From: Vicinamibacteria bacterium
GTDB taxonomy: Bacteria; Acidobacteriota; Vicinamibacteria; Vicinamibacterales; UBA8438
DNA length: 34,220 bases
Reading direction: 5' to 3'
NCBI GenBank assembly: GCA_022820675.1
Contig: JAJEFC010000032.1
Coordinates: 1-34,220, forward strand
Shown here: piece by piece, positions 21,592 to 30,177 of the stretch
How the letters are laid out: every line of letters begins with the position of its first letter
How positions within the stretch are numbered: the stretch's first letter is position 1
Made by a program: the position numbers and the translations under genes
The notes under the pieces: generated by a model
Told to the model about the DNA's origin: nothing
Database searches by the model: none
The model's input: only the letters and a program-made list of their open reading frames with translations

Positions 21592-22263
21592 CTAGTCGGC
21601 CTTCTTGATGAAGTAGTCGACGAGCTCGGACGACGAGTTGTCCATCTCGACGTTGAAGAACTCGATGCGCGTGGTCAGGCCATTGTAGAACCACACGGCG
21701 GGAATCGCCACGAACAGCCCGATGGCGGTCCCGACGAGCGCTTCCGCGATACCGGCCGACACCGCGCCGAGGCCGCCCGACCCCGTGGCCGCGATGCCCT
21801 GGAACGCGTTGATGACGCCCAGGGTGGTGGCGAGGAGGCCGACGAACACGGCGGTGGCCCCGATGGTGGCCAGCGACCCCATGCCCTTCTTGAGGTCGGC
21901 CGCGGTGAGGGCGGAGGCGCGCTGGATGGCCCGGCGCACGCTGTCGATCACGTCGTCGCGGCTCAGCTCGACCCCGGCGTCCTTCTGGAACTGATACTCC
22001 TGCAGCCCGGCCAGGACGACCTTTCCGAGGTGGCTGTACTTGTAGTTCTTCGACTGCGAGACGGCGATGGCGTCCTTCAGGTGACCGTCCTTCAGGTGCT
22101 TGGCGACCTGGGGCGCGAAGGCCTTCGACTGCTTTCCGGCCTGCGTGAAGGTGAAGAGCCGCTCGAAGAAGACGCCCATCGACCACATCGACATCAGCCC
22201 CAACAAGATCATGAGGGCCTTGACGGGAATGCCCATCTGTTCCCAGAGTTCCAGAAGATCCAT
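21592..22263 (-). CDS. exbB: ExbB/TolQ/MotA family proton channel subunit
   Basis: 223 residues with three membrane helices: one near the N-terminus (ALMILLGLMSMWSMGVFF) and two in the C-terminal half (SLATIGATAVFVGLLATTLG and EALVGTAIGLFVAIPAVWFY). Between them lies the cytoplasmic helical region. The conserved pore Thr and small residues of the family are present in GTAIGLFVAIPA. Forms the stator-like pentamer that, with ExbD, couples the proton gradient to TonB. The start is well supported by GGAGG before the ATG. It is the second gene of the tonB operon. Confidence 0.94.
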   Translation of the reverse strand: MDLLELWEQMGIPVKALMILLGLMSMWSMGVFFERLFTFTQAGKQSKAFAPQVAKHLKDGHLKDAIAVSQSKNYKYSHLGKVVLAGLQEYQFQKDAGVELSRDDVIDSVRRAIQRASALTAADLKKGMGSLATIGATAVFVGLLATTLGVINAFQGIAATGSGGLGAVSAGIAEALVGTAIGLFVAIPAVWFYNGLTTRIEFFNVEMDNSSSELVDYFIKKAD

Positions 22264-22360
22264 TGTGCCTCCTACCTGCGATTCACATCATCGGGCGGGC
22301 GGGGCGCCGGACGACCGGCGCCCCGCCGCCCACAACACGGTTCCTCGTTTCGTGCGCCGG

Positions 22361-23071
22361 CTACCGCAACTGGAAGTTCACCGTCACCGTCATGATCACG
22401 GGAACCGCGACGCCGTTCAGCAGCGTCGGCGTATACGTCCACTGCCGCACCGCCTCGATGGCAGCCTCGTCGAGCAGCGGCACCGAGCGCAGCACCTTCA
22501 CGTCGGTGACCCGGCCGTCGGGGCCGATGACCGCCTCGAGAATCACGACGCCCTGGACCCGCGCCGCCTGGGCGACGGGAGGATAACGCGGCTGTACGTC
22601 GGTCACCTTGGTCGGGGCCTGGATGTTGCCGCCGACGCGGACCGGCTCGGGTGGGGGCGGGGGCGGGGGCGGGGCCTCGAGCAGCCCGCCGACGATGCCG
22701 CCCACGACGCCGCCGGCGATGCCGCCCTCGACGCCGGAGACGCTCGACAGGTCGAAGCCCGTCTCCGGCGCAATCTGGGCCGGGGCCTCGATGGGGGCGG
22801 CGTTGGGGTTGATGTCGACGACCGGCGCCTCGACCGCCTGCGCGGCCGGGGGCGGCGGAGGCGGCGGAGGCGGCGGAGGCGGCGGAGGCGCGGCCACGAA
22901 CGCCATCATCGACGGCACCTGCGGCAGCGCCTCGGCCGCGAGCAGCGGCACGATGAGGACGGCGGCGATCGCCACCACGTGCGCCAGCATGGAAACCGGC
23001 ACCGTGTACCACTTCTGCGCGCCGATCTTGATCGACGGATTCGCGATTTCACCGAACATCTGACCTGCCAC
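22361..23071 (-). CDS. tonB: TonB family energy transducer with long polyproline linker
   Basis: 236 residues. The N-terminal membrane helix starts around residue 24 and carries Ser27 and His31 in the SxxxH spacing needed for contact with ExbB/ExbD. The periplasmic linker has a run of 14 prolines (residues 62-75), a Gly/Val-rich segment, and a second run of eight prolines. The C-terminal TonB domain is GVVILEAVIGPDGRVTDVKV...AIEAVRQWTYTP. It spans the periplasm and drives outer-membrane receptors. The GTG at 23071 is chosen because AGGAGG lies exactly 6 bases upstream; an ATG four codons later is less well placed. First gene of the operon, behind a perfect promoter. Confidence 0.93.
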   Translation of the reverse strand: MAGQMFGEIANPSIKIGAQKWYTVPVSMLAHVVAIAAVLIVPLLAAEALPQVPSMMAFVAAPPPPPPPPPPPPPPAAQAVEAPVVDINPNAAPIEAPAQIAPETGFDLSSVSGVEGGIAGGVVGGIVGGLLEAPPPPPPPPEPVRVGGNIQAPTKVTDVQPRYPPVAQAARVQGVVILEAVIGPDGRVTDVKVLRSVPLLDEAAIEAVRQWTYTPTLLNGVAVPVIMTVTVNFQLR

Positions 23072-23126
23072 AGGCAACCTCCTGCGCCCCGTTAGGGGAT
23101 GAATCGCTTCACGATGAGAGGGACGA

Positions 23127-23155
23127 ATTATATGCAGACACCAAACCACTGTCAA
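23127..23155 (-). promoter_or_regulatory. perfect-consensus sigma-70 promoter of tonB-exbB-exbD-exbD
   Basis: On the minus strand TTGACA (23155-23150), exactly 17 bases, TATAAT (23132-23127). Both hexamers equal the consensus. The start of transcription would be near 23120, giving a leader of about 50 bases ahead of the AGGAGG-supported GTG. I see no Fur-box-like palindrome over it. Confidence 0.88.
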
Positions 23156-23261
23156 CGCAAGTCCGAACGCAAAATCGTCGCCCGCCGCCTTCGCGTCCCG
23201 TCCGGGCTTCCCGGCGACGCCGCCGGTCCGCCAATCGCCGCCCGCGGCCCCGGCGGTCGCC

Positions 23262-23396
23262 CCGGCCCAGCCCTCCGGGAGTCCGCGCGCCGTTCCGCAC
23301 CGCAGCCCCCCGGCTGGCCCGGAGAGCGTCGCCTGCGGCTCCGCTCTCCCGACCAACCCCGCCAGGCGTCTGCACCGCGCTACGGCGCAGACGCCT
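23262..23396. repeat. palindromic extragenic repeat cluster overlapping the hppA stop
   Basis: In the gap between tonB and hppA. GGAGAGC (23321-23327) pairs with GCTCTCC (23343-23349) around a CCTGCGGCTCC-containing loop. AGGCGTCTGC (23364-23373) pairs perfectly with GCAGACGCCT (23387-23396) around 13 bases and covers the hppA TAG. Near 23275 there is a decayed copy of the GGGAGTCTGCGCCG arm. The stop-overlapping hairpin may terminate hppA transcription. Confidence 0.65.
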
Positions 23397-25503
23397 AGCG
23401 CATCCAGGCCACGACCAGCGGCACGAAGATGACCGCGACGATGGTCATCAGCTTGATGAGGATGTTGAGGCTCGGCCCCGCCGTGTCCTTGAACGGATCG
23501 CCGACGGTGTCGCCGATGACCGCCGCCTTGTGTGGCTCCGAGCCCTTGCCGCCGTGGTGGCCTTCCTCGATCAGCTTCTTGGCGTTGTCCCAGACCCCGC
23601 CCGCGTTGGCCATCATCAGGGCCATGAGGACGCCGGTCACGAGCGCGCCCCCGAGCAGCCCCCCGAGGCCGGCCACCCCCAGCACGAAGCCGGTCAGCAC
23701 CGGCGCGACCACCGCGAGGAGGCCGGGCAGGATCATCTCCTTGATGGCGGACTGCGTGGAGATGGCCACGCACCGCGCCGAGTCGGGCTCGGCCGTCCCC
23801 TCGAGGAGCCCGGGGATGCTGCGGAACTGCCGGCGGACCTCCTCGATCATCTGGTTGGCGGACCGGCCCACCGCGTTCATGGTCAGGGCCGAGAAGATGA
23901 ACGGCAGCATGCCCCCGATGAACATGCCGATCAGCACGTTGGGGTTCGTCAGCTCGAGGCTCAGTTGCCGCGGGTCGAACGCGCCGGCGCCGCCGGCCTG
24001 GGCCACGTTGTCGGCGGCGGTCGCCTGGAACGTCGAGAACAGGGCGAGGGCGGTGAGGGCGGCCGAGCCGATGGCGAAGCCCTTGCCCATCGCCGCGGTG
24101 GTGTTGCCGACCGCGTCGAGGGCGTCGGTGCGGTCGCGCACGAACGGCTCGCACTTGCTCATCTCGGCGATGCCCCCGGCGTTGTCGGCGACCGGCCCGT
24201 AGGCGTCGACGCCGAGGCTGATGCCGAGCGTGGAGAGCATGCCGACGGCGGCGATGGCGATGCCGTAGAGCTCGCCCAACTGGTAGCTGAAGAAGATGGC
24301 GAAGCAGACCACGAGCACCGGGTAGCCGCACGACATCATGCCGACCCCGAGGCCCGCGATGATGTTGGTGGCGGGGCCGGTCTCCGACTGCTCGGCGATG
24401 TGGCTGGCCGGCGGCATGTCCTTGCCCGTGTAGTACTCGGTGAGCTTGCCGATGACGACCCCCGCCACCACCCCGAACACCACGCAGCCCATGACCGGCC
24501 AGGGGACCGAGGTGACCGAGATGAGGGCGGCGGCGCCGCCGACGACGATGACCGACGCCACGATGAGCCCCCGCAGCAGCGCCCCCTGCACCTTGCTCTC
24601 GTCGTCGGTGCGCACCGTGAAGGTCCCCAGAATGGAGGCGACGATGCCGAAGCCGGCGAGCAGCACCGGGAACACCGCGAGATCGGCCTGGAGGGCGAGG
24701 AAGCCGCTCTCGCCCACGCCCCACAGGTCGGCGGCGGTGGCCGCGGTGAGGGCCCACGCGAGGGCCACCGACGAGATGATGCTGCCCACGTAGGACTCGA
24801 AGAGGTCGGCCCCCATGCCCGCCACGTCCCCGACGTTGTCGCCGACGCTGTCGGCGATGGTCGCGGGGTTGCGGGGATCGTCCTCGGGAATGCCCGCCTC
24901 GACCTTGCCCGACAGGTCGCCGGCGACGTCCGCGGCCTTGGTGAAGATGCCGCCCCCGACCCGCGCGAACAGGGCGATGGACGACGCCCCGAGGGAGAGG
25001 CCGAGCAGCGACCCGACGGCGGACGGGCCGCGGCCGTCGAGGCCGCCGTAGAGCCAGTAGAGAAGCGCGATGCCCAGGGTGCCGAGGGCGACCACCGTCA
25101 GGCCCATGACCGCGCCGCTGGAGAACGCCACCCGCAGGGCCCCGGCGAGGCTGGTCTGCGCCGCCGCGGTGGTCCGGACGGCGGCGCCGGTGGCGGTGCG
25201 CATGCCCACCCAGCCCGCGGTGGCGGAGAGAAGCGCGCCGACGAGGAAGCTGACGCCGACGAGCAGCGAGTCGCCCGGCAGGAACAGCACGAGGACGCCG
25301 AACATGACGACGACGAACACCGCCAGGACGCTGTACTCGGTCTGCAGGAAGGCCATCGCGCCGCGGCGGATGAGGGCCGCGATCTGCTGCATGCGCTCGG
25401 TGCCGGCGTCGTGGGCGTTGATGGCGCGGATCAGGGAGAGCGCGAAGAGGGCGGCGGCGATGGGCGCGCCGACCCCGAGGAGCACGTAGAGTGAGTTGTC
25501 CAT
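23395..25503 (-). CDS. hppA: membrane-bound ion-pumping pyrophosphatase, K+-dependent type
   Basis: 702 residues, about 16 hydrophobic helices. The substrate-site motifs DDPRNPATIADSVGDNVGD and AGMGADLFESYVG are intact, as is the C-terminal DNAKKLIEEGHHGGKGSE plus AVIGDTVGDPFKDTAGPSLN. It couples PPi hydrolysis to pumping of H+ or Na+ across the membrane. The GNTTAAMGKGFAIGSA stretch has Ala and Gly at the two positions that distinguish K+-dependent from K+-independent (Lys/Thr) enzymes, so K+ stimulation is expected; whether Na+ or H+ is pumped is not settled. Expressed from a clear promoter 140-165 bases upstream. Confidence 0.95.
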   Translation of the reverse strand: MDNSLYVLLGVGAPIAAALFALSLIRAINAHDAGTERMQQIAALIRRGAMAFLQTEYSVLAVFVVVMFGVLVLFLPGDSLLVGVSFLVGALLSATAGWVGMRTATGAAVRTTAAAQTSLAGALRVAFSSGAVMGLTVVALGTLGIALLYWLYGGLDGRGPSAVGSLLGLSLGASSIALFARVGGGIFTKAADVAGDLSGKVEAGIPEDDPRNPATIADSVGDNVGDVAGMGADLFESYVGSIISSVALAWALTAATAADLWGVGESGFLALQADLAVFPVLLAGFGIVASILGTFTVRTDDESKVQGALLRGLIVASVIVVGGAAALISVTSVPWPVMGCVVFGVVAGVVIGKLTEYYTGKDMPPASHIAEQSETGPATNIIAGLGVGMMSCGYPVLVVCFAIFFSYQLGELYGIAIAAVGMLSTLGISLGVDAYGPVADNAGGIAEMSKCEPFVRDRTDALDAVGNTTAAMGKGFAIGSAALTALALFSTFQATAADNVAQAGGAGAFDPRQLSLELTNPNVLIGMFIGGMLPFIFSALTMNAVGRSANQMIEEVRRQFRSIPGLLEGTAEPDSARCVAISTQSAIKEMILPGLLAVVAPVLTGFVLGVAGLGGLLGGALVTGVLMALMMANAGGVWDNAKKLIEEGHHGGKGSEPHKAAVIGDTVGDPFKDTAGPSLNILIKLMTIVAVIFVPLVVAWMR

Positions 25504-25640
25504 TCTCCGACCTTGAGCTTTCGTGACCGTACGGCTCGCCGGCTGATCCGGCGCGGCGCGCACCCCGCCCGCCGTCGCGGGGAGGATGCGCCCGAGACGT
25601 CCGCTGTCGCGCCGCCGGAGCGGCCGTACAAGGACGCGCA

Positions 25641-25669
25641 AACCTAGCAGCCGTCCGTGCGGCTGTCAA
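25641..25669 (-). promoter_or_regulatory. hppA promoter with a palindrome in its spacer
   Basis: On the minus strand TTGACA (25669-25664), 17 bases, TAGGTT (25646-25641). The spacer and last -35 bases contain the inverted repeat CAGCCG (25648-25653) and CGGCTG (25660-25665), separated by 6 bases. This placement would suit a repressor or activator site. The leader to the ATG would be about 130 bases. Confidence 0.7.
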
Positions 25670-25706
25670 GCGCGCCGACGTCCGGGCTGGCGTCTCAGCT
25701 CGATCC

Positions 25707-25738
25707 GTGATGGCGTGAGATCTGTGATGGCGTGAGAT
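25707..25738. repeat. 17-bp tandem duplication
   Basis: GTGATGGCGTGAGAT occurs twice, at 25707-25721 and 25724-25738, just after the small coiled-coil gene stop. No function visible. Confidence 0.6.
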
Positions 25739-25744
25739 GACGCC

Positions 25745-26065
25745 CTACTGGAGGACGGCCACAACCGCCGCGACTGCTGCGATGGCGGCAATCAGGGTCG
25801 CGATGAACCACTTGAGCATGGTGGATTGAAGCTCGTTGAGATCGGCTTTCGTGGCCGTGCTTTCCAGGCGGGTGTCGATCTTCGCGACATCGGCTTCCGT
25901 AGCGGTGCTTTCCAGGCGGGTGTCGATCTTCGCGACGGTGGTTTCGACGCGATGAATGTGCGCCAGGAGGCGGTCGTAACGACTCCCGTTTCCCCCGCCG
26001 TCACCAGCCAGCGTACGCCGGCTCGTCTCTTCCTTGTCGCCAGGGAACGGAAGCGGGTCGGTCAT
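25745..26065 (-). CDS. coiled-coil protein with C-terminal membrane anchor
   Basis: 106 residues. A disordered N-terminus (MTDPLPFPGDKEETS) is followed by a coiled coil with a nearly exact 16-residue duplication beginning KIDTRLESTAT, matched by a 48-bp DNA repeat near 25840-25935. A C-terminal membrane helix (WFIATLIAAIAAVAAVVAVL) closes it. The layout resembles DUF1640-like coiled-coil proteins; this is an impression, not a match. Its ATG overlaps the stop of the upstream gene as ATGA, so the two are coupled. Like the coiled-coil genes at 811 and 10786 it is small and of unknown function, but here the anchor is C-terminal. Confidence 0.65.
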   Translation of the reverse strand: MTDPLPFPGDKEETSRRTLAGDGGGNGSRYDRLLAHIHRVETTVAKIDTRLESTATEADVAKIDTRLESTATKADLNELQSTMLKWFIATLIAAIAAVAAVVAVLQ

Positions 26066-26316
26066 GAGGCGTACCGCTTGAGCCACTCCCACACGTCGGA
26101 GCGGTGGTATCCGTGGTACGCCCCATTCAGGCCGAGAACGATCCCGCCCCGTTCGGCGTCCTCGCCACCGATGCCGGCCTTCGCCGCGATGGCCGCAGAC
26201 ATCTCGTCGGTCTTCAGCAACCATGCTCCCGGACCGACCTCGATCGGGCTGTACTCGGTCAGGGCCGTCGGAATGGCCGACAGCGGTTCGTCGAAGACGA
26301 CGATGAACAGAGACAT
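26062..26316 (-). CDS. small alpha/beta protein of unknown function
   Basis: 84 residues starting MSLFIVVFDEPLSAIPTALT, with PGAWLLKTDEMSAAIAAKAG in the middle and HRSDVWEWLKRYAS at the end. The strand-helix-strand start and the AWLL segment recall small Cas2/SinR-like ferredoxin-fold proteins, but I cannot support that firmly. No cas genes or arrays are present. It is first in a two-gene unit with the coiled-coil membrane gene (4-base overlap). Its promoter is well defined and ends 10 bases before the ATG, implying a leaderless message, and no Shine-Dalgarno sequence is present. Confidence 0.62.
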   Translation of the reverse strand: MSLFIVVFDEPLSAIPTALTEYSPIEVGPGAWLLKTDEMSAAIAAKAGIGGEDAERGGIVLGLNGAYHGYHRSDVWEWLKRYAS

Positions 26317-26326
26317 GGGGACGCCA

Positions 26327-26355
26327 ATTCTATTGGACGTGATCCAGACCGGCAA
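26327..26355 (-). promoter_or_regulatory. promoter of the small two-gene module, near-leaderless
   Basis: On the minus strand TTGCCG (26355-26350), exactly 17 bases, TAGAAT (26332-26327). The expected transcription start is within about 4-5 bases of the ATG at 26316. Confidence 0.65.
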
Positions 26356-26452
26356 GGTTTGCGGTTGTGGGGTCGAGGACAGGTCGATCAGCCCTGTGCG
26401 GCCCGGCGGTGCTCCACGGATCCTTCGGAACCGAGCCGAGACACTGCCGGCG

Positions 26453-27259
26453 TCAGAGTCCCAGCGCCAATCCGACCGCCAGCGCCGCCGCCACCGCGAG
26501 CCGGTACCAGGCGAAGGCGGCGAGCGAGTGCCGGGAGAGATAGCGGAGCAGCCCCGCCACCGCGAGATAGCCGACGACGCCCGAGGTGACGAGCCCCGCG
26601 AGCAGGGCCGGCGCGTTCGCGGCCAGGCCGTCACCCCCGAGCATGCGCGCCGCCTGCAGCCCCCCGGCGGCGCTGGCGGGAATACCGAGGAGAAAGGCGA
26701 ACCGGGCCGCCTCGGGCCGCGACAGCCCCAGGAGCAGGGCCACCGTGATGATCGCGCCCGACCGCGAGACGCCCGGCACGAGGGCCGCCGCCTGCGCGCA
26801 GCCGAGCACGAGGGCGTCTCCGGCCGAGAGCGACGACGCGCGCCGCGAGGACGCCTCGCCCCGATCCGCCCAGAGCATCGCGGCGGCGCCGAGGGCCAGC
26901 GTCGCCGCGACCACCGCGGGACCGCGCAGGCGGTCGACGTGTCCGGAGAGGAGCAGGCCCAGGGGGACCAGGGGAGCGGTCGCGAGCAGAATCAGCCGGC
27001 CCGTGCGGGCGTCGTCGCCTCCGCCGCCCGTGAGGGCCCGGGGGGCGGCGGCGGCCAGCGCGAGGACGTCGCGCCGGAAGTAGGCGAGCACCGCCGTCAG
27101 GGTGCCGAGGTGGCAGGCCACGTCGAACGGGATCTCCACCGCCCCCGCGTCCCAGCCGAACAGCTCGCGAACGAGGATGAGATGGGCGGAGCTGGAGATG
27201 GGCAGGAACTCGGTCAGCCCCTGCACGATGCCGAGCCACACGGCCTGGACGGTGGTCAT
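26453..27259 (-). CDS. uppP: undecaprenyl-diphosphatase (BacA/UppP type)
   Basis: 268 residues with about eight hydrophobic helices. The N-terminal active-site motif QGLTEFLPISSSAHL includes Gln13, Glu17 and His26. The second motif, PGVSRSGAIITVALLLGLSR, supplies the catalytic Arg/Ser cluster. It dephosphorylates undecaprenyl pyrophosphate to recycle the lipid carrier for peptidoglycan and other glycans, and overexpression is known to give bacitracin resistance. No Shine-Dalgarno sequence is visible before the ATG. It stands between the tgt-sec cluster and the small two-gene module, probably as a separate unit, and fits functionally with ddl nearby. Confidence 0.95.
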   Translation of the reverse strand: MTTVQAVWLGIVQGLTEFLPISSSAHLILVRELFGWDAGAVEIPFDVACHLGTLTAVLAYFRRDVLALAAAAPRALTGGGGDDARTGRLILLATAPLVPLGLLLSGHVDRLRGPAVVAATLALGAAAMLWADRGEASSRRASSLSAGDALVLGCAQAAALVPGVSRSGAIITVALLLGLSRPEAARFAFLLGIPASAAGGLQAARMLGGDGLAANAPALLAGLVTSGVVGYLAVAGLLRYLSRHSLAAFAWYRLAVAAALAVGLALGL

Positions 27260-27291
27260 GCGGCGTCAGGGTCGGGCGGCGGCCCGGGGAC

Positions 27292-27420
27292 GGGTGCACG
27301 TCAGATTCGTGGGACCCGCCTCTGCCGCCGCGAGCACTTCGCCGAAAGCCACCCGTTCGCACGCCAACCTGGCCCCGAAATGCTCGCAACCGCGAATCTG
27401 CAACTTTCCTGACGTGCCCC
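27292..27420. mobile_element. copy B of the GCACGTCAG inverted-end element (129 bp)
   Basis: Ends GGGTGCACGTCAG and (reverse complement) GGGGCACGTCAG. Nearly identical to copy A at 18756-18886, including the interior CCCGCCTCTGCCGCCGCGAG and CGAAATGCTCGCAACCGCGA. No coding frame. It fills most of the uppP-secF gap (27260-27516); the remainder is GC-rich with no other recognisable feature. Confidence 0.75.
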
Positions 27421-27516
27421 CCCCGGGGACCCGTGGCGCGGCCCCGCGTCGCCGGCGGCGCGGACCCGCGCTCGCCGGTCCCGGTGCGACGCGAGGTCTC
27501 GCCGCCGGCCCCGTCA

Positions 27517-28524
27517 TCAGGCGCGGGCGCGGGCCCTCGGTGACTTCCCCCGGCGCCGCTTGGGCTTCGAGCCCGTGGACGACGACGCCGCGGCCGCCGG
27601 CGCCGCCTGCAGCCGCCGGGCGGCCCGGCGCTCGCTGATGACGATGGCGGCCGCGGCGGCGATGAAGATCGTGGAGTAGGTGCCGCTGAGCACCCCGACG
27701 AGCATCGTGAAGGCGAAGCCCCGCAGCACCTCGCCGCCGAAGAGGAACAGCGCGAGGACGGCGAAGGCGGTGGTGCCCGAGGTGATGATGGTGCGGCTCA
27801 GGGTCTGGTTGATGCTGGCGTTGACGAGCTTGTCGAACGCGTCGCGCCGCATGCGCCGGAGGTTCTCGCGCACCCGGTCGAACACGACGATGGAGTCGTT
27901 CACGGAGTAGCCGGTGATGGTCAGCATGGCCGCGACGACGGCCAGCGACAGGTCGAAGCCGAAGAAGGTCAACATCGACAGGGTCACGAGGATGTCGTGA
28001 ACGACCGCGATGATCGCCCCCACCGCGAAGCTGAACCGGAAGCGGAAGGCGACGTAGACGAGGATGCCGAGCATCGCGAACACGAAGGCGTTGACCCCGC
28101 GGCGCTGCAGCTCCTCGCCGATGACCGGCCCCACGAGCTCCTGCCCGATGACCGTGAAGCCGCCGATGGGGCTCTCCTCGAGGGCCGCGACGACCGCGTT
28201 CGCGCCCTCCTCGAGGCTCGTGCCCTCCTCGGGGTCGTCGCTCTGCGGCAGCCGGATCATGATCTCGTTGGAGTCGGCGTCGCCGTACTGCTGGACGACG
28301 CTCTCGCCGGCCGCGTCCCCCACGGCGCCGCGCACCTGGTCCTCGGTGACGGGCTCGTCGAACTGCACGATGACGATGGTGCCGCCCGAGAAGTCGATAC
28401 CGAGGGCCAGCCCCCCCTGCAGCGCCGTCATCGCGGCCCCGGCGGCGATGATGAGGCACGAGAGGCCGACGGCCGGCCAGCGCCACTTGAGGAAGTCGAA
28501 GTTCGGGTTCTTGAAGATGGGCAT
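27517..28524 (-). CDS. secF: protein translocase subunit SecF
   Basis: 335 residues. First membrane helix near residues 15-35, then the periplasmic P1-like region opening with LALGIDFSGGTIVIVQF, the hallmark shared by SecD and SecF. A five-helix RND-type core follows, with GIL...VVHDILVTLSML and SVNDSIVVFDRVREN. The tail is basic. With SecD and YajC it uses the proton gradient to pull secreted proteins out of SecYEG on the periplasmic side. The ATG is 87 bases after the secD stop. An extra acidic insert (QSDDPEEGTSLEEGANAV) sits in the periplasmic part. The last gene of the cluster. Confidence 0.95.
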   Translation of the reverse strand: MPIFKNPNFDFLKWRWPAVGLSCLIIAAGAAMTALQGGLALGIDFSGGTIVIVQFDEPVTEDQVRGAVGDAAGESVVQQYGDADSNEIMIRLPQSDDPEEGTSLEEGANAVVAALEESPIGGFTVIGQELVGPVIGEELQRRGVNAFVFAMLGILVYVAFRFRFSFAVGAIIAVVHDILVTLSMLTFFGFDLSLAVVAAMLTITGYSVNDSIVVFDRVRENLRRMRRDAFDKLVNASINQTLSRTIITSGTTAFAVLALFLFGGEVLRGFAFTMLVGVLSGTYSTIFIAAAAAIVISERRAARRLQAAPAAAASSSTGSKPKRRRGKSPRARARA

Positions 28525-28611
28525 ACGCGCGTCGGTGTCCCGGATGGTCAGGCCGCGGCCGCGCCGGCCGGCGGCGGTGCAATCGGATCAGGCAGAGCGG
28601 GCTCCGGCGGC

Positions 28612-30177
28612 TCAGATGCTCAACGAGGCTTCCCGGCGGCGCGTGAGCACCGTCTCGAAGATGGTGCGCGACACGAAGACCGCGGTGAACACGTTCGACA
28701 CGAGGCCGAAGAACAGCGTGGTCGCGAAGCCCTTGATGGGCCCCGAGCCGAACTGGAACAGGAAGGCGGCGGCGATGAGCGACGCGATGTGGGTGTCGAG
28801 AATGGTCAGGAAGACGCGGTCGAACCCGGCCGCGACGGCCGCCCGGACCCCCTTGGCGGAGCCCAGCTCCTCCTTGATGCGTTCGAATATCAGCACGTTG
28901 GAATCGACCCCCATGCCGATGGTGAGGATGAACCCGGCGATGCCCGGCAGGGTGAGCACGGCCCCGACGTAGGCCATGCACCCGAGGAGGATGAGCAGGT
29001 TCATCCCCACCGCGACGACCGCGTTGATGCCCGACAGCCGGTAGTAGAGAAGCATGAACAGGGCGACGGCGATGAGCCCCGAGGCCGACGCGGTGACCCC
29101 GGCGCGGATGGAGTCGGCCCCCAGGCTCGGCCCCACCGTCCGCTCCTCGAGATAGGTGAGGGACGCGGGCAGGGCGCCCGACCGCAGGATCAGCGCGAGA
29201 TCGGTCGCCTCCCCCGTCGTGAAGGTGCCGGTGATGCGCCCCTCGTCGGCGATGCGCTCCTGGATGACGGGGGCCGAGTAGACCCGGTTGTCGAGGATGA
29301 TGGCGAGGTTGCGCCCGACGTTGCTGCCCGTGAAGTTGCCGAACTTGCGGGCCCCCTCGCGGTTGAACGAGAAGCTGATGGCGGGCTGGTTGAACTCGTC
29401 GATGGTCGGCCGGGCGTTGCGCAGGTCGCGCCCCGTCACCGGGGCGACCCGCCGCACGAGGTAGTAGACGGTCGAGCCGGGGGCGGCGCCGAGGGACTCG
29501 TCGGCCCCCGACACGACCTCCATGTCCGCGGGCACGATGCCGTTCCTCGCCTGCAGCAGCAGCTCGCGCGAGAGGGCGGGGCCGTCCTCGACCAGCTTCA
29601 GCTCGAGGAGGCCGGTCGAGCGGATGATCTCCTTCGCCCCCTGCACGTCCTCGACGCCGGGCAACTGGACGAGGATCTGGTCGCCGGCGACGCCGTGGGG
29701 GGCGACGATGGGCTCGGCGACGCCGAGCTCGTTGACCCGGCGCTCGATGGTCTGGAGGGCCTGGCGCACCGACTCCTCGCGAAGCTGCCGCTCGATGCCC
29801 GGCAGCATGCCGAAGGTGTAGGCGCCGGGGCCGTCGGCCCGCCGGTCGTAGCTCACCTGCAACAGATCGTCGGCGATGCCGCGGAACTCCTGGTCGCGGT
29901 CGCCGGGGACGCCCTCGACCCGGATCTCCGTCGGGGCGGCGGCGCCGGCCGAGAGCAGCTCGATGCCGACGAGGCTCGCCTGCTCCCTCAACTGCTCGGC
30001 GTTGGTCTCGGTCTCGACCCGCAGCGCGTCGTCGGTCTGCACCCGGAGCACGAGATGGACGCCGCCCCGGAGGTCGAGGCCGAGCCGCACCTGGTCCTCG
30101 GGCGGATAGATGGCGAACGCGGCCGCGGCCGCCACCGCGACGATGGTCAACAGCTTCCAGCGCAGGTTCTTCTTCAT
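28612..30177 (-). CDS. secD: protein translocase subunit SecD
   Basis: 521 residues. An N-terminal helix is followed by VRLGLDLRGGVHLVLRV, the first periplasmic domain with VNELGVAEPIV and QILVQLPGV, and the RND-like membrane core with GADSIRAGVTAS and GMGVDSNVLIFERIKEE near the C-terminus. Slightly shorter than E. coli SecD (615) but normal for many phyla. It works with SecF in the inner membrane. The gene is 60 bases downstream of yajC. The SecD/SecF junction is unfused, as in most Gram-negatives. Confidence 0.95.
   Translation of the reverse strand: MKKNLRWKLLTIVAVAAAAAFAIYPPEDQVRLGLDLRGGVHLVLRVQTDDALRVETETNAEQLREQASLVGIELLSAGAAAPTEIRVEGVPGDRDQEFRGIADDLLQVSYDRRADGPGAYTFGMLPGIERQLREESVRQALQTIERRVNELGVAEPIVAPHGVAGDQILVQLPGVEDVQGAKEIIRSTGLLELKLVEDGPALSRELLLQARNGIVPADMEVVSGADESLGAAPGSTVYYLVRRVAPVTGRDLRNARPTIDEFNQPAISFSFNREGARKFGNFTGSNVGRNLAIILDNRVYSAPVIQERIADEGRITGTFTTGEATDLALILRSGALPASLTYLEERTVGPSLGADSIRAGVTASASGLIAVALFMLLYYRLSGINAVVAVGMNLLILLGCMAYVGAVLTLPGIAGFILTIGMGVDSNVLIFERIKEELGSAKGVRAAVAAGFDRVFLTILDTHIASLIAAAFLFQFGSGPIKGFATTLFFGLVSNVFTAVFVSRTIFETVLTRRREASLSI

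What the first reader, a model, noticed from the sequence alone, without database searches (positions are those of the whole stretch)
25745..26355. Compact two-gene module: small alpha/beta protein plus coiled-coil membrane protein
A clear promoter (TTGCCG-17-TAGAAT), two small genes with a 4-base ATGA overlap, and location between unrelated housekeeping genes make a self-contained unit. The coiled coil contains a near-exact 48-bp duplication. Layout and size recall toxin-antitoxin or membrane-effector pairs, but neither protein is recognised.
Basis: partly seen in the sequence, partly recalled or inferred. Interest (0 to 1): 0.5.

Follow-up and report, generated by a model that had tools for sequence, protein, structure and literature searches.

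The report
Mobile Cas2-fold plus membrane-stalk gene pair
Two tiny overlapping bacterial genes, one for a small soluble protein with a Cas2-like shape and one for a coiled-coil protein anchored in the membrane, form a rare gene pair that recurs in distantly related bacteria and in phages, so they very probably work as one unit whose task (perhaps guarding the cell) is still untested.

Summary
In detail: 84- and 106-residue ORFs, a 4-base overlap, a promoter-like site and a 48-bp duplication, between uppP and hppA. The pair is a real two-gene module that I found described nowhere. Gene 1 (Y.G......WEW invariant in 19 aligned members) has no Pfam or NCBIfam match. [quoted passage not shown] its profile matches SinR-like phage/plasmid proteins (hhalign 97%). 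Gene 2 is a disordered tail, a coiled coil and a C-terminal membrane helix. Of 30 gene 1 loci (several phyla, four phage contigs), 26 have this partner directly downstream, against 0 of 9 SinR-like relatives and 3 of 232 background ORFs; the overlap is 4 bp in 14 of 24 pairs; one locus is a fusion; dN/dS is below 1 for both genes. The module is rare, patchy, up to four copies per genome (three here), and absent from this site in two congeners. The closest gene 2 seen (57%) sits beside another gene 1 type. I propose a membrane-tethered sensor/effector (toxin-antitoxin- or exclusion-like) unit: pairing shown, fold predicted, function inferred.

The parts
26062..26316 (-). gene 1: 84-aa SinR-like/Cas2-fold protein with C-terminal Y.G......WEW helix
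25745..26065 (-). gene 2: 106-aa protein; disordered N-tail, Gly/Asn linker, coiled coil (model helix 28-67), membrane helix about 87-105
   Evidence: only the last helix is modelled with confidence
26062..26065 (-). ATGA stop/start overlap (translational coupling inferred)
   Evidence: 4-bp overlap in 14 of 24 pairs
26327..26355 (-). promoter-like TTGCCG-17-TAGAAT, -10 ends 10 nt before the gene 1 ATG
   Evidence: 1 found, 0.1 expected
25838..25933 (.). 48-bp tandem duplication, 92% identical, adds 16 residues to the coiled-coil stalk
   Evidence: single unit in L095
25761..25993 (-). gene 2 linker + coiled coil + membrane helix block, 75-80% DNA identity to L095, whose gene 1 is of another type
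25672..26435 (.). segment without counterpart in congener G001 (approximate borders read from one alignment), between the uppP stop and a conserved stretch upstream of hppA

Best explanation
A mobile two-gene module. Shown by sequence: a small soluble protein of the SinR-like superfamily (Cas2-like fold predicted) is encoded with, and mostly overlaps, a small coiled-coil protein with a membrane helix, usually at its C-terminus. Inferred: gene 2 sits in the inner membrane by its tail, N-terminus in the cytoplasm, and oligomerises through the coiled coil. Gene 1, which lacks a conserved nuclease residue, binds the cytoplasmic N-terminal tail of gene 2 through its conserved C-terminal face and holds the membrane protein inactive. 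A trigger (phage or other stress) changes gene 1 or removes it, the membrane helices assemble and depolarise or leak the membrane, stopping growth. So it would work like a toxin-antitoxin, abortive-infection or superinfection-exclusion pair with a membrane effector, with the soluble protein as restraint/sensor.
For: Pairing in 26 of 30 gene 1 loci, against 0 of 9 SinR-like relatives (8, L067) and 3 of 232 ORF ends in 17 loci fetched for other reasons plus the window without gene 1. 4-bp overlap in 14 of 24 pairs. In-frame fusion in L018. dN/dS 0.07-0.48 for both genes. Model and fold search: mean pLDDT 84.8; Foldseek's first eight rows are Cas2 or Cas1-Cas2 entries and BPSL1038; VIA-align best BPSL1038, Z 6.4. 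hhalign to SinR-like proteins 97.3%, E 2.4e-11. Phage copies: downstream of a tail-fibre J-like ORF and a DNA methyltransferase in L036, behind a 2603-aa ORF in L039, with neighbouring ORFs read on the other strand in L037 and L038. Patchy, up to four copies per genome; absent from this site in G001 and G002 by gap length. Partner change: gene 2 57% identical, gene 1 20%, DNA homology beginning at the gene 2 linker, which suggests that the gene 2 N-tail goes with gene 1.
Against: No toxicity, neutralisation or anti-phage data. No match to a known toxin, antitoxin or defence family. Chromosomal neighbours look mostly like housekeeping genes. Foldseek E-values are weak (best 0.06); Z 6.4 may only reflect a common fold, and Cas2 rows (Z 5.3 or less) tie with copper chaperones. 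The gene 2 model is poor outside the last helix (mean pLDDT 65). The WEW motif is not universal: 23 of the 30 loci have it; seven, two of them in this genome, have WDW, WGW or a KL..WE-type tail. Co-divergence of the genes is only modest (Mantel r 0.36, p 0.001, n=24; 0.285, p 0.012, n=21; chromosomal only 0.285, p 0.039, n=19). Three of 18 gene 2-like matches stand without gene 1. The single 'partner swap' could also be unequal rates. A fusion (L018) sits badly with a releasable inhibitor.
Confidence: 0.38

Rival explanations
1. Membrane tether: gene 2 is only an anchor with an adjustable coiled-coil stalk that puts the SinR-like protein, as a nucleic-acid or protein binder, at the inner membrane. 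No toxin is involved; the unit is regulatory or positions another complex.
For: Stalk length varies: 48-bp duplication in the window, one unit in L095, long repetitive stalk in phage L023. Fusion of the two parts in L018, which suits an anchor better than a releasable inhibitor. Neighbourhoods that look like housekeeping.
Against: Mobile, multi-copy, phage-borne distribution is unusual for a plain regulator; no conserved surface for nucleic acid is known.
Confidence: 0.27
2. Phage superinfection exclusion or lysogenic-conversion cargo: expressed from (pro)phages or captured chromosomally, the membrane protein blocks entry or injection of other phages.
For: Four of four distinct viral contigs found carry the whole pair, downstream of large late-type ORFs or with neighbouring ORFs on the other strand.
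Against: Most copies found are on chromosomal contigs, and I saw no phage genes beside those I read (no family search of the neighbours was made); no receptor or host data.
Confidence: 0.15
3. Lysis accessory of the XhlA/holin kind: gene 2 helps membrane disruption at phage lysis, gene 1 times it.
For: Gene 2 of the window gives XhlA (E 4e-4, 20.9 bits) and PHROG 1193 'hemolysin' (E 7e-6).
Against: Score is below Pfam's cut-off of 34.7; the two phage gene 2 proteins scanned gave no holin or hemolysin family at E 0.001; no endolysin seen beside the window's pair.
Confidence: 0.1
4. Chance ORFs or selfish sequence without a common function.
For: Rare and patchy; some copies broken (L013, L028, remnant L086).
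Against: 26 of 30 pairing against 3 of 232, dN/dS below 1 for both genes, conserved motif.
Confidence: 0.02

Closest known systems
SinR-like small proteins of temperate phages and plasmids (for example Enterococcus phage phiFL1A gp05, note 'sinR-like'; not shown to be related to the Bacillus regulator SinR)
   Same: Homologous to gene 1 by profile (97.3%, E 2.4e-11); similar length; W[DE]W in the C-terminus of 5 of 7 aligned.
   Different: None of 9 examined has the coiled-coil membrane partner downstream (L061 has a membrane-type gene upstream instead); 6 of 7 keep YDL in strand 1, which gene 1 lacks.
BPSL1038 of Burkholderia pseudomallei (PDB 7VXR), Cas2/VapD-like nuclease sub-family (PMC10491678)
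   Same: Best structural match (Z 6.4); same order of elements including the extra C-terminal helix.
   Different: D11(X20)SST active site not conserved in gene 1; the words membrane and operon do not occur in that paper's main text.
Cas2
   Same: Ferredoxin-like fold; top Foldseek rows.
   Different: No CRISPR_Cas2 Pfam match for gene 1; catalytic Asp not conserved; I saw no cas1 among the ORFs of window 23500-29000.
XhlA (PF10779) and DUF1640/CCDC90-like coiled-coil membrane proteins
   Same: Coiled coil followed by a C-terminal membrane helix.
   Different: All below curated cut-offs; gene 2 has a disordered N-tail and a Gly/Asn linker, and gene 1 in front.
RexAB and type II toxin-antitoxin pairs (recalled, not compared)
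   Same: Two-gene layout, soluble protein plus membrane or toxic partner, carried by phages.
   Different: No sequence comparison made; RexB is multi-pass (recalled).

Membership tests
[quoted passage not shown]
   Predicted model E2-8 H17-22 E25-28 E31-36 H40-47 E58-62 H72-83, mean pLDDT 84.8; VIA best 7vxr_A Z 6.4, rmsd 3.2, 63 aligned; Foldseek E 0.06-0.12. A common fold, so weak as proof of kinship
Cas2 / BPSL1038-VapD-like nucleases | catalytic Asp after strand 1 and, for BPSL1038, D11(X20)SST | tested here: not met
   Window has D9 but the column is not conserved in the 19-sequence alignment and no SST is seen; motif definition from PMC10491678
Cas2 / BPSL1038-VapD-like nucleases | match to the CRISPR_Cas2 Pfam model | tested here: not met
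   0 of 8 gene 1 proteins; 1 of 7 SinR-like relatives at E 0.0038
SinR-like superfamily | sequence-profile homology | tested here: met
   hhalign A8 vs A12 probability 97.3, E 2.4e-11, 83 columns; the A8 search also found the SinR-like L058, L061, L101. L058 and L061 are in A12
XhlA | Pfam PF10779 above its curated score | tested here: not met
   20.9 bits against 34.7
Type II toxin-antitoxin | two small overlapping co-directional genes kept together | tested here: met
Type II toxin-antitoxin | known toxin or antitoxin domain | tested here: not met
   no such family above cut-off in Pfam or NCBIfam
Type II toxin-antitoxin | toxicity of one protein, neutralised by the other | not testable with these tools
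   needs expression tests

The most novel reading that the evidence does not exclude
An undescribed class of membrane-effector immune or toxin-antitoxin unit: a catalytically dead Cas2-fold protein acts as exchangeable sensor or restraint for a membrane-anchored coiled-coil effector; the effector block (linker, stalk, membrane helix) is kept while the sensor and the effector's N-tail are exchanged, and the unit is traded between phages and distantly related symbionts.
Probability: 0.3. Interest if true: 0.78.

Novelty: new variant of a known kind. Interest (0 to 1): 0.52.

Why it matters
Cas2-fold proteins are known as nucleases, CRISPR adaptors and VapD-type toxins. A lineage that seems to have lost the catalytic residues and become tied to a membrane-anchored coiled-coil partner would be a new use of the fold. 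It also gives a small, testable two-gene unit in uncultured bacteria and phages, where most mobile small genes are unexplained. No title or abstract start in the listings of my seven searches of the held PubMed Central library (one search listed 10 of 44 papers) described such a pair; the papers themselves were not read, except parts of PMC10491678 and passages of PMC4158269.

Tried and rejected
Rejected: chance ORFs; CRISPR component (no Cas2 model match, no catalytic Asp conservation); XhlA membership (below cut-off); known defence family (PADLOC, window proteins only: JetB at E 0.025). L015 and L019 were dropped as chance matches before any pairing count (L015 lies in what I read as an ScpB frame). 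Left out of the 30-locus test: L035 as a near-copy of L034, L018 because it is fused, L086 as a remnant, and loci that repeat the same place. The four misses in the 30 (L013, L028, L054, L055) each have a coiled-coil ORF in place: L013 frameshifted, L028 and L054 short and without a membrane helix, L055 with a helix below the hydropathy limit. The 30 were fixed after the partner had been seen in most of them; they came from searches on gene 1 alone except L095, which came from a gene 2 search. The nine SinR-like controls are L058, L061, L101 and six of seven plasmid or phage regions fetched; L065 could not be tested because its record ends there. Those seven were picked from 59 plasmid and 54 phage records with a match. 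Overlap counts depend on the start codons I chose. Led nowhere: tblastn of three gene 1 proteins in plasmids and of two in phages (none; L020 gave one weak phage record); PDB sequence searches (no meaningful match); fold search among viral proteins (none at E 0.001); two more viral-contig scans (no relative); a promoter search upstream of 24 copies (mixed: 12 of 24 have none by the criterion). Genome surveys are lower bounds, since in many genomes only 13-17 first-look candidates were scored.

Full report
What is there. On the minus strand of the window, between uppP (stop at 26453) and hppA (start at 25503), lie two ORFs: gene 1, 26062-26316, 84 aa, and gene 2, 25745-26065, 106 aa, overlapping by ATGA. 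A promoter-like site TTGCCG-17-TAGAAT at 26355-26327 was the only one found in 25500-26500, with 0.1 expected. The 48-bp duplication is 92% identical. G+C is 0.65-0.66 in the 500-base windows over the pair and 0.70-0.77 in the next three on either side, but values of 0.64-0.68 occur elsewhere in 22000-30000, so this is no strong sign of foreign origin.

No known family fits. Gene 1 matches nothing in Pfam, NCBIfam or PHROGs and only a stray PADLOC model. Gene 2 gives sub-threshold XhlA (20.9 bits against 34.7) and PHROG 1193 'hemolysin' (E 7e-6).

Relatives. Gene 1 alone in 100 related genomes: 6 with a match at E 0.01, counting the window's own genome and one (G092, locus L015) that I dropped as chance. 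In 396 genomes of the phylum it found 2, the own genome and a chance match, L019. A genome-collection scan with four sequences returned 11 loci, titled Vicinamibacterales/Vicinamibacteria, Pseudomonadales, Nitrospira, Nitrospirales, Candidatus Spongiihabitans and an unnamed bacterium. Three viral-contig scans gave four distinct contigs; two more gave none. A 19-member alignment has the invariant pattern Y.G......WEW. It is not universal: in the 30 loci used below, 23 have WEW, the others WDW (L052, L053, L060), WGW (L100) or a KL..WE-type tail (L062, L063, L095).

Rarity and copy number. With the 19-member profile, sampled surveys found a match at E 0.001 in 3 of 396 genomes of the window's phylum, 3 of 293 of the order of G460, 3 of 398 of the phylum of G464, 2 of 198 of the phylum of G461 and 1 of 149 of the phylum of G463. 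Each count includes its centre genome. Beyond the centres that is seven genomes: four with a pair (L057, L060, L100, L102) and three with SinR-like genes lacking the downstream partner (L058, L061, L101). Where the family occurs it is often multi-copy: three gene 1 copies in G460, four in G462, two in G463, three in G002, three in the window's genome, two of these with the KL..WE tail, plus a remnant, L086, in which the start of a gene 1 runs into a gene 2 coiled coil after a deletion.

The partner. In 30 gene 1 loci, 26 have a 70-200 residue ORF with a hydrophobic helix in its second half that starts between 20 nt before and 9 nt after the last base of gene 1. Of 9 SinR-like relatives none does (8, L067). 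Background: 1 of 147 ORF ends in 17 loci fetched for uppP or by chance matches, and 2 of 85 in the window without gene 1. An earlier background of 66 in 1190 had included the gene 1 loci and their duplicates. The four misses still have a coiled-coil ORF in place. With the start codons I chose, the overlap is 4 bp in 14 of 24 pairs, 8 in 2, 11 in 4, 17 in 2, and there is a 2- or 4-nt gap in one each. In L018 the two genes form one ORF; a sequencing indel is not excluded. dN/dS was 0.07-0.48 in nine comparisons of gene 1 or gene 2 between relatives, and 0.45 for the window's gene 2 against L095; dS is near saturation in several, and no significance was computed. The converse search (gene 2 profile in seven genomes) gave 18 matches, of which 14 adjoin a full gene 1, one is the remnant, and three (L096, L098, L099) have none; L098 and L099 look like DUF1640/CCDC90-type proteins (my reading).

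Fold and ancestry. AlphaFold2 with 15 sequences gives mean pLDDT 84.8, pTM 0.70, elements E-H-E-E-H-E-H. Foldseek's first rows are E. coli Cas2 chains (best E 0.06) and BPSL1038 (E 0.12), none significant alone. VIA-align's best is BPSL1038, Z 6.4, rmsd 3.2 over 63 residues; the others are 5.3 or less, where Cas2 ties with copper chaperones. [quoted passage not shown] Stronger evidence is by sequence: the gene 1 profile matches a profile of seven SinR-like proteins at 97.3%, E 2.4e-11; one of these, phiFL1A gp05, is noted 'sinR-like' in its record. SinR-like relatives are found in 59 plasmid records (query L061) and 54 phage records (query L058). Neither the Asp nor the SST is conserved in gene 1, so I read it as a non-catalytic branch. 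A fold search among viral proteins gave no match at E 0.001.

Gene 2. The model is a helix 28-67 and a helix 72-105, confident only in the latter; hydropathy puts the centre of the membrane helix at 63-91% of the length in the 24 partners listed. In L100, judged by eye, the helix comes before the coiled coil.

Mobility and exchange. I searched uppP in 12 chosen relatives; 11 have it, and hppA lies beside it in all 11. The gap is 385 bp in G001 and 431 bp in G002 against about 950 in the window, and the window's extra stretch lies between the uppP stop and a stretch upstream of hppA that is conserved in all three. The closest gene 2 seen (L095, in G001, at another place) is 57% identical over 89 residues, with DNA homology at window 25993-25761 only, starting at the Gly/Asn linker. 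Its gene 1 is 20% identical to the window's and closer to those of L062 and L063 (34% and 33%). The window's gene 1 is nearest, among the eight compared, to L011's (45%), whose gene 2 is only 28% identical. I infer exchange of gene 1 together with the gene 2 N-tail; unequal rates are not excluded. Co-divergence over all pairs is modest, which fits.

Phage settings. L036 has the pair downstream of a tail-fibre J-like ORF and a DNA methyltransferase; L039 has it behind a 2603-aa ORF matching large phage families of unknown function; in L037 and L038 neighbouring ORFs read on the other strand, and L037 also holds Rha- and Arc-like regulators. These are places where phages may carry cargo genes (general knowledge).

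Mechanism. See best explanation. Shown by sequence: pairing, overlap, kinship to SinR-like proteins, patchy distribution. Predicted: fold and membrane helix. Inferred: coupling, topology, binding, restraint and membrane leak.

Noticed in passing
G000:C229 (L086, reverse strand, ORF 1534-1845): Remnant in the window's own genome: first residues of a gene 1 joined by deletion to a gene 2 coiled coil; relatives L017 (intact) and L018 (fused) seem to lie at the same kind of place, judged by neighbouring frames.
   Followed up: partly
window 25702-25738: 17-bp direct repeat, 2.2 copies (GATCCGTGATGGCGTGA), just past the gene 2 stop, near the edge of the stretch missing in G001; meaning unknown.
   Followed up: no
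L071 1295-1318 and 1376-1399: In congener G001 the same intergenic gap holds two copies of a palindromic repeat, REP-like; the exact pattern is in none of the other 101 loci held.
   Followed up: partly
L061 reverse strand 1151-1504: A SinR-like gene has an upstream two-helix membrane-type gene overlapping it by 4 bp: perhaps an independent membrane partnership of this superfamily.
   Followed up: no
L068 2498-5246; L064 2498-4518: SinR-like genes without the partner lie beside a nucleotidyltransferase/SAVED (CBASS-like) set on a Cereibacter plasmid and near a RES/Xre toxin-antitoxin pair on a Fuscovulum plasmid.
   Followed up: no
loci: Several carriers may be marine sponge symbionts (Spongiihabitans by its title; bin names SB0677, APA_bin, jk18x and p16x by recall only; one search showed one listing that names Spongiihabitans in a sponge study).
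   Followed up: partly
L032 2373-2801 and 3779-4060: The pair in Ca. Spongiihabitans is flanked on both sides by ORFs with a DUF1640-like start (MNSL.FDTHKAVKALTQAG), by my reading.
   Followed up: no
L023 6291-6884: Phage gene 2 with a coiled coil lengthened by several repeats of an EKAEEKHAAAL-like unit: stalk length changes by duplication, as in the window.
   Followed up: partly
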